Positions 8,619 to 12,748 of a stretch of DNA of 32,582 bases are shown here, piece after piece; the stretch's first letter is position 1, and each line of letters starts with the position of its first letter. The notes below the pieces were generated by a model that worked only from the letters and a program-made list of their open reading frames with translations, searched no databases and had not been told where the DNA came from. This DNA comes from an uncultured Chlorobiaceae bacterium (GTDB lineage: Bacteria; Bacteroidota; Chlorobiia; Chlorobiales; Chlorobiaceae). A program made the translations under genes and the position numbers. The stretch is from the NCBI GenBank assembly GCA_903836465.1, contig CAILRB010000052.1, positions 1 to 32,582 of the forward strand. The letters run 5' to 3'.

Positions 8619-8668
8619 TTGTGAGGTCAATAACTCGCATCGACCTTGAACCAGGAAGATTTCAGATC

Positions 8669-9298
8669 ATGGACAAACCAGCTCCAACTCATCAGACAAA
8701 AACTCCGACGAAACCAGAGGCTCTGTCCCGGGAGGAGCGCAAAAAACAACTGGAATTTCAAAAAGAAGCGGTAGTGCATCTTCATTCGCTCTATAACTAC
8801 GCCCTTCATATAACCATGAATCCGGATGATGCGGAGGATCTGGTACAGGAGACCTATCTCAAGGCCTATCGATTTTTTAATTCTTTTGAACGGGGAACAA
8901 ACTGCAAGGCCTGGCTGTTTAAAATTCTGAAAAACAATTATATCAATCGTTTTCGTAAAAACTCAAAAGAGCCGGGAAAAGTTGATTATGATCTCATCAA
9001 GGACTTTTATCATTCGATAAAAGACACCCGAAGAGACAGCAGCGAGGCGGATACAGATTATTTTCATTCATTGCTGCACGAAGAGGTTTATCAGGCTCTT
9101 CACTCTTTACCCGAAGAGTTCAGAGAGGTGATTCAGTTGTGTGATATTGAAGGATTTACTTATGAGGAGATTGCAAATATGGTAGACAGCCCTATAGGCA
9201 CGGTACGATCAAGGCTCTATCGGGGAAGAAAATTGCTTCGTGTTCAGCTTGAAGAATATGCCAGAAAATACGGCTTTAATACCGGCAAAGATCAATAA
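8669..9298 (+). CDS. ECF-type RNA polymerase sigma factor, SigR/RpoE-like
   Basis: This 209-residue sigma-70 family factor of the extracytoplasmic-function type has only regions 2 and 4. Region 2 includes [20 protein letters not shown] and the -10-recognising segment [16 protein letters not shown]. Region 4 has the helix-turn-helix [20 protein letters not shown] followed by RGRKLLR. The PIGTV-SRL-RGR pattern resembles Streptomyces SigR and the related stress factors paired with zinc anti-sigma proteins. The ATG at 8669 has AGGAAG at 8653-8658, ten bases upstream, and is preferred over a GTG at 8621. The next gene, 28 bases downstream, encodes a matching zinc anti-sigma protein. A role in redox or envelope stress is inferred from this pairing. 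Confidence 0.9.
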
Positions 9299-9326
9299 AT
9301 CAATACGCACAAATTCTATTTTTACT

Positions 9327-9584
9327 ATGAACTGCAAAACAGCCCGCGTACTTATGAGTGCCGCTGTAGACGGCGAAATTTCTTTCAAGGAAGAAAAGGG
9401 TTTTCTCTCACACCTGTTGGAATGTAAAGAGTGCTGCGATGAGTTTGATGATGCAAAAAAAACAAAGATGATCATCAAGGAGAGGATTATACAGTTTAAA
9501 GCGCCGCAGACCCTTATTGATTCGATCATGCAACTCACCGATTTCAATACCAGGGAGACCGAAGAGACCCTCCTTTATGAGTAA
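9327..9584 (+). CDS. zinc-binding anti-sigma factor (RsrA/ZAS-like)
   Basis: This small protein of 85 residues carries the zinc anti-sigma signature H29-x3-C33-x2-C36, with an upstream cysteine at position 3. That is the four-ligand pattern of RsrA-type proteins, which release their sigma factor when the cysteines are oxidised. An extra cysteine follows at 37. No transmembrane segment is visible, so it should be a cytoplasmic sensor. The start at ATG 9327 places C3 at the expected N-terminal position; upstream in-frame starts would add a leader with no family resemblance. It directly follows the ECF sigma gene and is very likely co-transcribed with it. Confidence 0.8.
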   Translation: MNCKTARVLMSAAVDGEISFKEEKGFLSHLLECKECCDEFDDAKKTKMIIKERIIQFKAPQTLIDSIMQLTDFNTRETEETLLYE

Positions 9585-9729: not shown

Positions 9730-10119
9730 ATGAACAAAACCGTTACGATTGTAGACGAAGAGGTTAAAAAGTGGAACCTTAATATGCCGGATGAGATGCT
9801 TGAAGCCGTATCCAGTCGGTTCAAGTTGCTCGCCGAACCAATGAGGCTTAAAATATTGCGTATTCTTTGTGATCAGGAGCACACTGTCCAGGAGATCGTC
9901 AAAAAAGTCAATGCAAGTCAGGCGAACATTTCAAAACATCTGACCCTGATGCATGACAATGGTGTAGTAACTCGCAGAAAAGAGGGGCTGAAATGCTATT
10001 ACCGCATTGCTGACGAAAGCATTATTTACGCATGCTATCTGACATCGAAAAGTGTCGTTGAAAACCTTCAGGACCGACTCAACTGGGTACAGAAAGTCAA
10101 TTCAAATCTACTCGGCTAA
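9730..10119 (+). CDS. ArsR-family transcriptional regulator
   Basis: This 129-residue winged-helix DNA-binding protein has the family opening [23 protein letters not shown], a recognition helix region [20 protein letters not shown], and a wing with [12 protein letters not shown]. The metal-binding motif ELCVCDL of the arsenic and cadmium sensors is absent; the corresponding position reads RILCDQEHT with a single cysteine. The ligand is therefore unknown and may be a metal, a redox cue or a small molecule. ATG 9730 is chosen over TTG 9640 because the extra 30 residues look non-coding and overlap a palindrome. The gene sits between the sigma/anti-sigma pair and the heat-shock genes. Confidence 0.82.
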
Positions 10120-10133
10120 ATTGCCGCCCGCAT

Positions 10134-10202
10134 TGTCTGACATTTTGTCATTTCCACAAGCAACAGAGTGACATTATTGTCACAAAAGCGTCATTTCTGA
10201 CA
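10134..10202 (+). promoter_or_regulatory. array of TGACA/TGTCA palindromes (enhancer-like)
   Basis: Three inverted repeats stand in a row. The first is TGACA-TTT-TGTCA (10138-10150), the second GTGACA-TTAT-TGTCAC (10168-10183), and the third cGTCA-TTTC-TGACA (10189-10202). Their centres are about 31.5 and 20 bases apart, that is close to three and two helical turns, so bound dimers would sit on one face of the DNA. An extra TGTC at 10134 abuts the first. They lie about 45-110 bases before the sigma-54-like promoter, the usual place for activator sites. Confidence 0.6.
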
Positions 10203-10245
10203 ACAAACTCCCTTTAACCATCCATCAAAACGCAGCATTAAGGCG

Positions 10246-10262
10246 TTGGCACGCTTTTTGAT
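10246..10262 (+). promoter_or_regulatory. sigma-54-like (-24/-12) promoter of hsp20-dnaK
   Basis: The sequence TTGGCACGCTTTTTGAT matches the sigma-54 consensus TTGGCACG-N4-TTGCW with GG at 10248-10249 and the exact 10-base spacing to the -12 element. The -12 dinucleotide is GA instead of GC, its one mismatch. The predicted start is near 10272. No sigma-70 pair with good spacing fits this region equally well. It precedes the hsp20 start codon by about 80 bases. Confidence 0.55.
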
Positions 10263-10341
10263 GTATAACTATCGGCGAGTTATTAATAGCCGAAAATTAT
10301 TCTACTCATAACCTGCTGTACGTTTAAAAAGGAGATATGTT

Positions 10342-10740
10342 ATGCTGTTAAAATTATCAAAAGACCCGCTTAAATTATTTGATGATATTTGGTCAGGCGC
10401 GCAGATGCCTTCAGCTCCGGCCTTCAGGGTCGATATTTCAGAGGATGAGTCCGCCTTTTATATTGACGCCGAACTCCCCGGCATCATAAAGGAAAATATT
10501 GCACTCAATATTGAGGATGATGTGCTGACCATTAACGCGGAAAGAAAACAGGACACAGAAGAAACAAAGAAAAATTACCACCGTGTTGAGAGATCGTCAG
10601 GTAACTTTTCGAGGAGCTTTAATCTTGGAGAGGCGATTGACCAGGAGAACATTAACGCGGATTTCAACAACGGAATACTTCATGTGACGCTTCCAAAAGC
10701 GTTGCCTGTACGGAAGAAAAAGGAAATTTCAATCAATTAA
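10342..10740 (+). CDS. hsp20: small heat-shock protein, Hsp20/alpha-crystallin family
   Basis: This 132-residue ATP-independent chaperone holds unfolding proteins for later refolding by DnaK. The alpha-crystallin domain covers roughly residues 28-125, from [20 protein letters not shown] to the beta-strand HVTLPKA. The C-terminal tail is short and ends in ISIN, and the usual IXI anchor is weak. GGAG at 10331-10334 sits seven bases before ATG 10342. It is the first gene after the sigma-54-like control region and is followed by a hairpin terminator and dnaK, so the two chaperones probably share a promoter. Confidence 0.95.
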
Positions 10741-10791: not shown

Positions 10792-10825
10792 GTCACCTCC
10801 ACAATAAAAATAAGGAATGCGTATT

Positions 10826-12748
10826 ATGGGTAAAATTATTGGCATTGATCTTGGGACTACGAACTCTTGTGTTTCGGTCATGCAGGGATCGCAGCCAACA
10901 GTTATTGAAAATTCGGAAGGTAATCGAACGACACCTTCCATCGTCGCTTTGACAAAAACGGGAGACCGCCTGGTTGGGCAGGCTGCAAAAAGACAGGCCA
11001 TTACCAACCCGAAGAATACCATTTTTTCGATTAAACGGTTTATGGGCCGCAAATACGATGAGATCACGAACGAGAAAAAGCTTGCTCCCTATGAAATCAT
11101 CAACGAAAATGGTGAGGCTCGGGTAAAAATAAACGACAAAATATACTCTCCCCAGGAAGTTTCCGCGATGGTTCTGCAGAAAATGAAGCAGACGGCTGAG
11201 GACTTTCTTGGTGAAAAGGTGACCGAAGCAGTTATCACCGTTCCGGCTTACTTTAATGACGCCCAGCGGCAGGCAACAAAAGATGCCGGTCGTATTGCCG
11301 GACTTGAGGTCAAGCGGATCATCAATGAGCCGACTGCTGCTGCCCTGGCTTACGGCCTTGACAGAAAGCAGGAAAGTGAGAAAGTTGCGGTGTTTGATCT
11401 TGGCGGAGGAACCTTTGATATTTCAGTTCTTGAGCTTGGGGATGGTGTTTTTGAGGTTAAATCAACCGACGGCGATACCCATCTCGGTGGTGATGATTTT
11501 GACCAGAAAATTATCGATTATGTTGCCGACGAGTTTAAAAAACAGGAGGGAATCGATCTTCGCAAGGACGCAATTACCTTGCAGCGTCTCAAGGAAGCTG
11601 CAGAGAAAGCAAAAATTGAACTTTCGTCAAGGACTGACACTGAAATCAACCTGCCCTTCATTACGGCAACCCAGGAAGGACCGAAACATCTTGTCATCAA
11701 TCTTACCCGTGCCAAATTCGAGGCATTGTGCGCCGACTTGTTTGACAAGATTCTTGATCCCTGCCGCCGTGCAATGAAAAATTCAAAGGTTGAGATGAAG
11801 GAGATTGACGAGGTCGTGCTGGTTGGTGGCTCAACCCGTATTCCGAAAGTACAGACGCTGGTCAAAGAGTTTTTTGGAAAAGAACCGAACAAAAGCGTTA
11901 ATCCTGATGAAGTTGTTGCCATAGGCGCAGCGATCCAGGGTGGTGTTTTGAAAGGCGATGTCACCGATGTTCTCTTGCTTGATGTCACACCACTGTCGCT
12001 TGGTATTGAAACCCTTGGCGGTGTCATGACAAAGCTTATCGACGCCAACACCACAATTCCAACCAAAAAGCAGGAGGTGTTTTCGACGGCTGGCGATAAT
12101 CAGACCTCTGTTGAGGTTCATGTTCTGCAGGGAGAGCGCCCCATGGCAAACGATAACAAAACGTTGGGACGTTTTCACCTTGGAGATATTCCGCCTTCTC
12201 CAAGAGGAATTCCCCAGATTGAGGTAGCATTCGATATTGACTCGAATGGTATTCTTCATGTTTCAGCAAAAGACAAGGCAACAGGAAAAGAGCAGAGCAT
12301 AAAAATTGAATCGAGCAGCAAACTCACTGATGCTGAAATCAATAAGATGAAGGAGGATGCCAAAATACATGCTGCCGAAGATCAGAAACGCAAAGAGGAG
12401 ATTGATACCAGAAATGTAGCTGACGGGCTGATTTTCAGCACTGAAAAACAGTTGAAAGAGCTTGGCGATAAAATACCTGCAGACAAGCGCCCTGTACTTG
12501 AAGGCTCTTTGGACAAACTCAGGGAAGCTTACAAGAACGGAACAATCGAGTCCATTAAAAGCGCAATGGAGGAACTCAACAAGGAGTGGAGCGACATCGC
12601 CACAAACCTCTATCAGTCATCCGGGCCGGAATCGTCACAGTCTGAGCCGGACGCGCAGCATGACGGCAGCGGAAAGAGCAGAAAAACCGGCGGAGATGGT
12701 AACGTTGAAAATGCTGAATACGAAGTGATTGACGGCAACGAAAAGTAA
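10826..12748 (+). CDS. dnaK: molecular chaperone DnaK (Hsp70)
   Basis: This 640-residue Hsp70 chaperone refolds proteins in ATP-driven cycles with DnaJ and GrpE. The nucleotide-binding domain has [14 protein letters not shown] at the N-terminus, [35 protein letters not shown], and [13 protein letters not shown]. The substrate-binding domain has the linker-proximal [19 protein letters not shown]. The C-terminal lid ends in [10 protein letters not shown], close to the usual EEVD-like acidic end. The ATG at 10826 has AAGGA nine bases upstream, whereas ATG 10817 abuts that site, so 10826 is chosen. Neither grpE nor dnaJ is adjacent. Confidence 0.98.

What the first reader, a model, noticed from the sequence alone, without database searches (positions are those of the whole stretch)
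10134..10262. Sigma-54-like promoter with three phased palindromes controlling hsp20-dnaK
A -24/-12 element with exact spacing (one mismatch, GA for GC) lies below three TGACA/TGTCA palindromes whose centres are about 3 and 2 helical turns apart. This is the layout of an enhancer bound by a sigma-54 activator. Heat-shock genes usually rely on sigma-32 or HrcA/CIRCE; E. coli ibpB is a known sigma-54 exception. It suggests a separate regulon in which an unknown activator turns on chaperones.
Basis: partly seen in the sequence, partly recalled or inferred. Interest (0 to 1): 0.75.

Follow-up and report, generated by a model that had tools for sequence, protein, structure and literature searches.

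The report
Sigma-54 enhancer promoter for hsp20-dnaK
In green sulfur bacteria the main small heat-shock protein and DnaK chaperone genes sit behind a highly conserved sigma-54 promoter with helically phased activator sites, and similar sites lie upstream of small heat-shock genes in more distant Bacteroidota, so these chaperones appear to be switched on by an enhancer-type activator instead of the usual heat-shock regulators.

Summary
A TTGGCAC-N5-TTGAT element (10246-10262) and three TGACA/TGTCA sites lie before hsp20-dnaK of a green sulfur bacterium. The genome has rpoN and five clear sigma-54 activator genes. The same -24/-12 element heads hsp20 in all 38 Chlorobiaceae intergenic regions aligned and in 9 promoters from other families of the order, even where the ArsR-type gene is not adjacent. 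What is conserved is the half-site (TGACA/TGTCA), not perfect palindromes: 3.3 per promoter against 0.5 in shuffles, on one face of the helix (period 10.2 bp). In one relative hsp20 is deleted and the promoter sits directly before dnaK. groESL instead carries the genome's only perfect CIRCE match. Eleven of 20 more distant Bacteroidota hsp20 genes have a -24/-12 element, most with a half-site near -28. The best activator candidate is an orphan AAA+/Fis protein without a sensor domain, found in 76 of 77 genomes of the class; one genome lacks it yet keeps the promoter, so its identity is open. In this genome the palindromes mark this operon only, so 'separate regulon' is too strong. Nothing was tested experimentally. 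Known kind, new variant.

The parts
10134..10150 (+). Upstream activator site 1: TGTC-TGACATTTTGTCA (half-sites 10134-10137, 10138-10142, 10146-10150)
   Evidence: sequence; GTCTGACATTTT is the most conserved part in the family alignment
10168..10183 (+). Upstream activator site 2: GTGACATTATTGTCAC, 16 bp, arms GTGACA/TGTCAC perfectly complementary
   Evidence: family form TGTGACATTTTTAYCA
10189..10202 (+). Upstream activator site 3: CGTCATTTCTGACA (TGTCATTTCTGACA in close relatives)
10246..10252 (+). -24 element TTGGCAC
   Evidence: TGGCA present in all 38 family loci by unfiltered best-score search; order-wide
10258..10262 (+). -12 element TTGAT (TTG kept in all loci, next base A/C/T)
10272..10272 (+). 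Predicted transcription start, about 12 nt after the -12 element (inferred, not mapped)
   Evidence: geometry of sigma-54 promoters; inference
10272..10293 (+). Short 5' leader hairpin TCGGC...GCCGA
   Evidence: leader nt 1-34 mean folding z -1.3 over 38 leaders versus +0.3 for nt 31-64
10342..10740 (+). hsp20 (small heat-shock protein), 132 aa
   Evidence: Pfam PF00011 E 5.6e-25
10817..12748 (+). dnaK, second gene of the unit
   Evidence: NCBIfam PRK00290 / TIGR02350 above cut-off; promoter retained directly before dnaK where hsp20 is deleted
9730..10119 (+). ArsR/SmtB-type regulator gene just upstream (neighbour, probably not the activator)
   Evidence: mostly not adjacent in families 2-4 of the order although the sites persist

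Best explanation
The region is an enhancer-dependent sigma-54 promoter that drives the hsp20-dnaK unit. RNA polymerase with RpoN sits at TTGGCAC-N5-TTGAT as a closed complex. A dimeric bacterial enhancer-binding protein (bEBP) recognises TGACA/TGTCA half-sites spread over about 27-109 bp upstream of the -24 element, all on one face of the helix; several dimers assemble there, the DNA bends or loops, and ATP hydrolysis opens the promoter. Shown: the elements, their conservation, their phase, the rpoN and bEBP genes, and retention of the promoter before dnaK when hsp20 is lost. Inferred: binding, start site, co-transcription, induction by protein-folding stress, and the activator. The most likely activator is the orphan bEBP at G000:C82:16276-17445 (AAA+ and Fis domains, no N-terminal sensor), about 0.45 likely; such proteins are typically held in check by a partner protein, which would have to be released under stress (inference from PspF-type bEBPs). 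The confidence below is for the sigma-54 enhancer promoter, not for the identity of the activator.
For: rpoN present; five clear bEBPs. -24/-12 score at least 10 of 13 in all 38 family loci, against 5% of shuffles; same element in nine promoters from three other families of the order. Half-sites 3.26 per promoter against 0.52 (sd 0.10) in shuffles. Helical phasing R 0.77 at 10.2 bp for 121 TGACA sites; frequent 5-mers not overlapping TGACA sites reach about 0.4-0.6. The window's clade carries its whole site block about 11 bp, one turn, farther upstream than its sister groups. Wider-phylum set (10 hsp20 promoters): 2.3 half-sites per promoter against 0.45, in the phase fitted on the order (mean cosine 0.65, n 23). 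hsp20-deleted L062 and internally deleted L061 keep the promoter before dnaK. Orphan bEBP: in 76 of 77 class genomes; invariant recognition-helix region ERTLYRK; the sampled family-4 genomes lack clear orthologues of the FhlA-like bEBP and of NifA among the loci read; G034 shows only NifA and this one yet has the promoter; the FhlA-like bEBP's own divergent sigma-54 promoter lacks phased TGACA sites.
Against: No transcript, binding or mutant data. The GC of the -12 element is GA here. Genome G024 keeps promoter and half-sites but no orphan bEBP was found in its 180-contig, 99%-complete assembly, so the activator may be another protein or the gene may fall in a gap. The orphan bEBP gene is not near hsp20, and usually follows a gene for a secreted protein, which would also fit an envelope role. 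Related sequences are not independent, so the phasing statistics are inflated to an unknown degree.
Confidence: 0.87

Rival explanations
1. The TGACA/TGTCA sites bind the ArsR/SmtB-type regulator encoded just upstream, which represses or activates hsp20; the sigma-54 element is secondary.
For: The ArsR-type gene lies directly upstream in all 38 Chlorobiaceae intergenic regions aligned; such regulators bind short inverted repeats (general knowledge).
Against: In families 2-4 the gene upstream of hsp20 is usually another one (an ArsR-type gene remains in one, L146), yet the sites and the -24/-12 persist, and similarly placed half-sites precede hsp20 in distant Bacteroidota. Sites sit 27-109 bp upstream of the -24 element in whole-turn steps, which suits an enhancer activator better than a promoter-blocking repressor.
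Confidence: 0.08
2. The sigma-54 promoter is real but the activator is another bEBP (FhlA-like GAF protein, NifA, or one of the two response regulators), coupling chaperones to nitrogen, redox or envelope signals. This rival concerns only the identity of the activator.
For: These bEBPs exist in the genome; genome G024 has the promoter but apparently no orphan bEBP.
Against: No single orthologue of these was found in all genomes that keep the sites: the sampled family-4 genomes lack clear FhlA-like and NifA orthologues, and G034 shows only NifA and the orphan. The FhlA-like protein's own target promoter lacks the sites.
Confidence: 0.45
3. The -24/-12 match is coincidental and hsp20-dnaK is read from a sigma-70-type promoter or by the ECF sigma factor encoded at 8621-9298.
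For: The ECF and anti-sigma pair is close by; chlorobial sigma-70 promoters may not resemble the E. coli consensus.
Against: No sigma-70-like site on the + strand between 9500 and 10342. The ECF-like motif GGAATTTT..TGTT is found before the second hsp20 gene and not here. The -24/-12 element is invariant in position and core over the order.
Confidence: 0.04

Closest known systems
E. coli ibpB sigma-54 promoter (cited in PMC4370416 and PMC4316790)
   Same: A small heat-shock protein gene with a reported sigma-54 promoter.
   Different: In E. coli it is a second promoter inside the sigma-32 ibpAB operon; here it is the only promoter recognised, it leads the unit with dnaK, has phased upstream sites and is kept across an order.
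Predicted sigma-54 chaperone genes in Bacteroidota and Planctomycetota (PMC12316311: IbpA, DnaK, GroES, GrpE clusters)
   Same: Predicts by promoter matrices that chaperone genes of Bacteroidota are enriched among sigma-54 targets.
   Different: In the passages read, Chlorobiia is named only for nitrogen fixation; no hsp20-dnaK unit, activator sites, phasing or activator is described there.
GlrR (QseF) sites TGTC-N10-GACA at glmY/glmZ (PMC4987338)
   Same: Sigma-54 activator sites built from TGTC/GACA half-sites.
   Different: Spacing differs: here the inward pairs are TGACA-N3/4-TGTCA; target genes are chaperones and not small RNAs.
HrcA/CIRCE control of groESL
   Same: Standard chaperone control; its operator is present in the same genome at groES.
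   Different: Repressor-based with sigma-70; no CIRCE before hsp20-dnaK.
PspF-type bEBPs
   Same: The candidate activator has AAA+ and Fis domains and no sensor domain.
   Different: Scores far below the PspF family cut-off, has a long linker before the Fis domain, and no inhibitor partner is identified.

Membership tests
Sigma-54 (RpoN) -24/-12 promoters | TGGCAC-N5-TTGCW with fixed GG to GC spacing | tested here: met
   10246-10262, one departure (GA for GC); TGGCA and TTG in all loci
Sigma-54 (RpoN) -24/-12 promoters | rpoN in the genome | tested here: met
   PF00309 over cut-off, 499-aa frame
Sigma-54 (RpoN) -24/-12 promoters | Transcription start about 12 nt below -12 and dependence on RpoN | not testable with these tools
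   no transcript data found in the paper library searched
bEBP enhancer (upstream activator sites) | Repeated dyads or half-sites roughly 50-150 bp upstream of the start, helically phased | tested here: met
bEBP enhancer (upstream activator sites) | Binding by a bEBP with GAFTGA loop | not testable with these tools
   candidate has GAFTGA; binding untested
PspF | TIGR02974 score above curated cut-off | tested here: not met
   orphan bEBP 276 bits against cut-off 443.55
CIRCE/HrcA control | TTAGCACTC-N9-GAGTGCTAA near the promoter | tested here: not met
   only perfect core match in the genome is at groES, contig C55
ROSE and other Rfam RNA thermometers | Rfam family match in the leader | tested here: not met
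   no match at E up to 1

The most novel reading that the evidence does not exclude
Across much of the Bacteroidota-Chlorobiota group a dedicated sigma-54 activator, lacking a sensor domain and perhaps inhibited by a chaperone or envelope partner, is the ancestral regulator of the small heat-shock protein (with DnaK in green sulfur bacteria): a heat-shock control circuit distinct from sigma-32, HrcA/CIRCE and ECF systems.
Probability: 0.35. Interest if true: 0.82.

Novelty: new variant of a known kind. Interest (0 to 1): 0.66.

Why it matters
Sigma-54 promoters are strictly activator-dependent, so chaperone supply here would be set by an ATP-driven switch that can be fully off. It would add a further way of controlling core chaperones, deeply conserved across an order and traceable into the wider phylum, and it gives a precise, testable binding motif for an uncharacterised widespread activator. 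It would also show a split of chaperone control in one genome: CIRCE for groESL, sigma-54 for hsp20-dnaK, and probably an ECF factor for a second hsp20.

Tried and rejected
A first query frame was wrong. A joint regulon by motif: the other palindromes lie in coding frames; the nifH-like gene (L070) and the gene divergent from the FhlA-like bEBP (L074) have -24/-12 elements without TGACA clusters. RNA thermometer: no Rfam match; only a short 5' hairpin. FhlA-like bEBP as TGACA binder: its own promoter lacks the sites. ArsR-type regulator: sites persist without the neighbour. Literature searches found no description of this promoter in green sulfur bacteria, but the library holds only open-licence papers.

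Full report
What the window is. The window is contig C52 of a 2.77-Mb genome of a green sulfur bacterium: it carries pscD of the P840 reaction centre and its ArsR-type protein is 98% identical to that of a Chlorobiaceae assembly. The local order is an ECF sigma factor, a zinc-finger anti-sigma, an ArsR/SmtB-type regulator, hsp20, dnaK, pscD.

Observation. The element written as TTGGCAYGNNNTTTGNW occurs once in the genome. Palindromes TGACA-N2-5-TGTCA occur at 14 places against 4 for a reversed control; the two here are the only ones outside long open frames and with a -24/-12 downstream (and for the one near a contig end).

Conservation within the family. 38 Chlorobiaceae intergenic regions, this window's included, keep the order ArsR-hsp20-dnaK. 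Without any filter, the best match to the -24/-12 consensus falls 72-110 bp before the hsp20 start in every one, with 10 to 13 of 13 positions right; shuffled regions reach 10 in 5% and 11 in 0.4% of cases. The alignment shows that the sites are conserved as GTCTGACATTTT, TGTGACATTTTTAYCA and GTCATTTCTGACA more than as perfect palindromes.

Conservation beyond the family. In nine promoters from families 2-4 of the order the same element precedes hsp20, with TGACA sites upstream, although in most of them the neighbouring gene is no longer the ArsR-type regulator. Of 20 hsp20 loci from more distant members of the phylum, 11 have a -24/-12 element, six more have TTGGCAC with an unusual -12, and three have neither. 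In 8 of the 10 of these analysed in detail a half-site falls at -27 to -29 and another at -87 to -89 from the -24 element; most of the eight are from one family, so they are not independent.

Phase. Over 50 promoters there are 3.26 TGACA/TGTCA half-sites per promoter in the 100-bp stretch from -125 to -25 (counted from the T of TGGCA), against 0.52 in shuffles. Their positions cluster at about -109, -99, -88, -78, -68, -58, -48, -38 and -27, a 10.2-bp rhythm (R 0.77 for TGACA; frequent 5-mers not overlapping the sites reach 0.4-0.6). In the window's clade the whole block is about 11 bp farther upstream than in sister groups, so spacing has changed by a whole turn. The phase fitted on the order predicts the positions in the wider phylum (mean cosine 0.65, n 23). 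Relatedness inflates these numbers to an unknown degree.

Link to dnaK. In L062 hsp20 is gone and the promoter lies directly before dnaK; in L061 hsp20 is internally deleted and the promoter remains. This is the best evidence here that the promoter serves dnaK too.

Other heat-shock control in the genome. The only perfect CIRCE core is before groES. A second hsp20 gene (contig C7) has no sigma-54 element; most family copies instead show GGAATTTT-like boxes followed by TGTT close upstream of the start, as expected for SigR-like ECF factors. Whether sigma-32 exists was not tested.

Activator. The genome has rpoN and five strong bEBPs: FhlA-like with GAF, NifA, two response regulators, and an orphan with AAA+ and Fis domains only. 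The orphan is present in 76 of 77 genomes of the class (a few copies are cut by contig ends or broken) with an invariant recognition-helix region in nine sequences spanning the order. The sampled family-4 genomes lack clear orthologues of the FhlA-like protein and NifA among the loci read, and G034 shows only NifA and the orphan while keeping the promoter. Against it: G024 keeps the promoter but no orphan gene was found. The FhlA-like protein has its own conserved divergent sigma-54 promoter without phased TGACA sites. I put the orphan at about 0.45.

Comparison with what is known. A sigma-54 promoter for ibpB in E. coli is cited in PMC4370416 and PMC4316790. A 2025 survey predicts sigma-54 control of chaperone genes in Bacteroidota (PMC12316311) but in the passages read mentions Chlorobiia only for nitrogen fixation. 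The D. vulgaris sigma-54 regulome paper (PMC4641369) lists no chaperone operon among its stress targets in the passages read. GlrR sites TGTC-N10-GACA (PMC4987338) share the half-site but not the spacing.

Verdict. A sigma-54 enhancer promoter for hsp20-dnaK is strongly supported by comparative sequence evidence; the activator and its signal are inferred. The kind is known; its use as the leading promoter of hsp20-dnaK across an order, and its likely reach into the wider phylum, make it a new variant.

Noticed in passing
8621-9584 and G000:C7:20507-20893 (L222-L237): An ECF sigma factor with an RsrA-like zinc-finger anti-sigma lies beside hsp20-dnaK; the second, paralogous hsp20 of Chlorobiaceae mostly has a GGAATTTT-like box followed by TGTT upstream and no sigma-54 element, suggesting control by such a factor.
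   Followed up: partly
10272-10293: A short hairpin right at the predicted 5' end of the hsp20 mRNA; the sequence changes between species but a stem is often kept (mean z -1.3 over 38 leaders).
   Followed up: partly
L062 5384-5605; L061 4132-4526: Two relatives have lost hsp20 wholly or internally while keeping the promoter before dnaK.
   Followed up: yes
L016 / L074 (G000:C67:24709-26966): A GAF-containing FhlA-like sigma-54 activator has a divergent sigma-54 promoter, also seen in many relatives; the gene it faces starts with a signal-peptide-like sequence and by eye resembles outer-membrane efflux proteins.
   Followed up: partly
L112 (G000:C82): The orphan sigma-54 activator gene is preceded by a gene for a secreted protein of about 220-270 aa in most genomes examined (not L175 or L177).
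   Followed up: no
L238, L239, L240, L249, L250, L257: Some Bacteroidota hsp20 genes have an intact TTGGCAC -24 element but an unusual -12 (TTTCC, TTTTC or shifted by one base).
   Followed up: no
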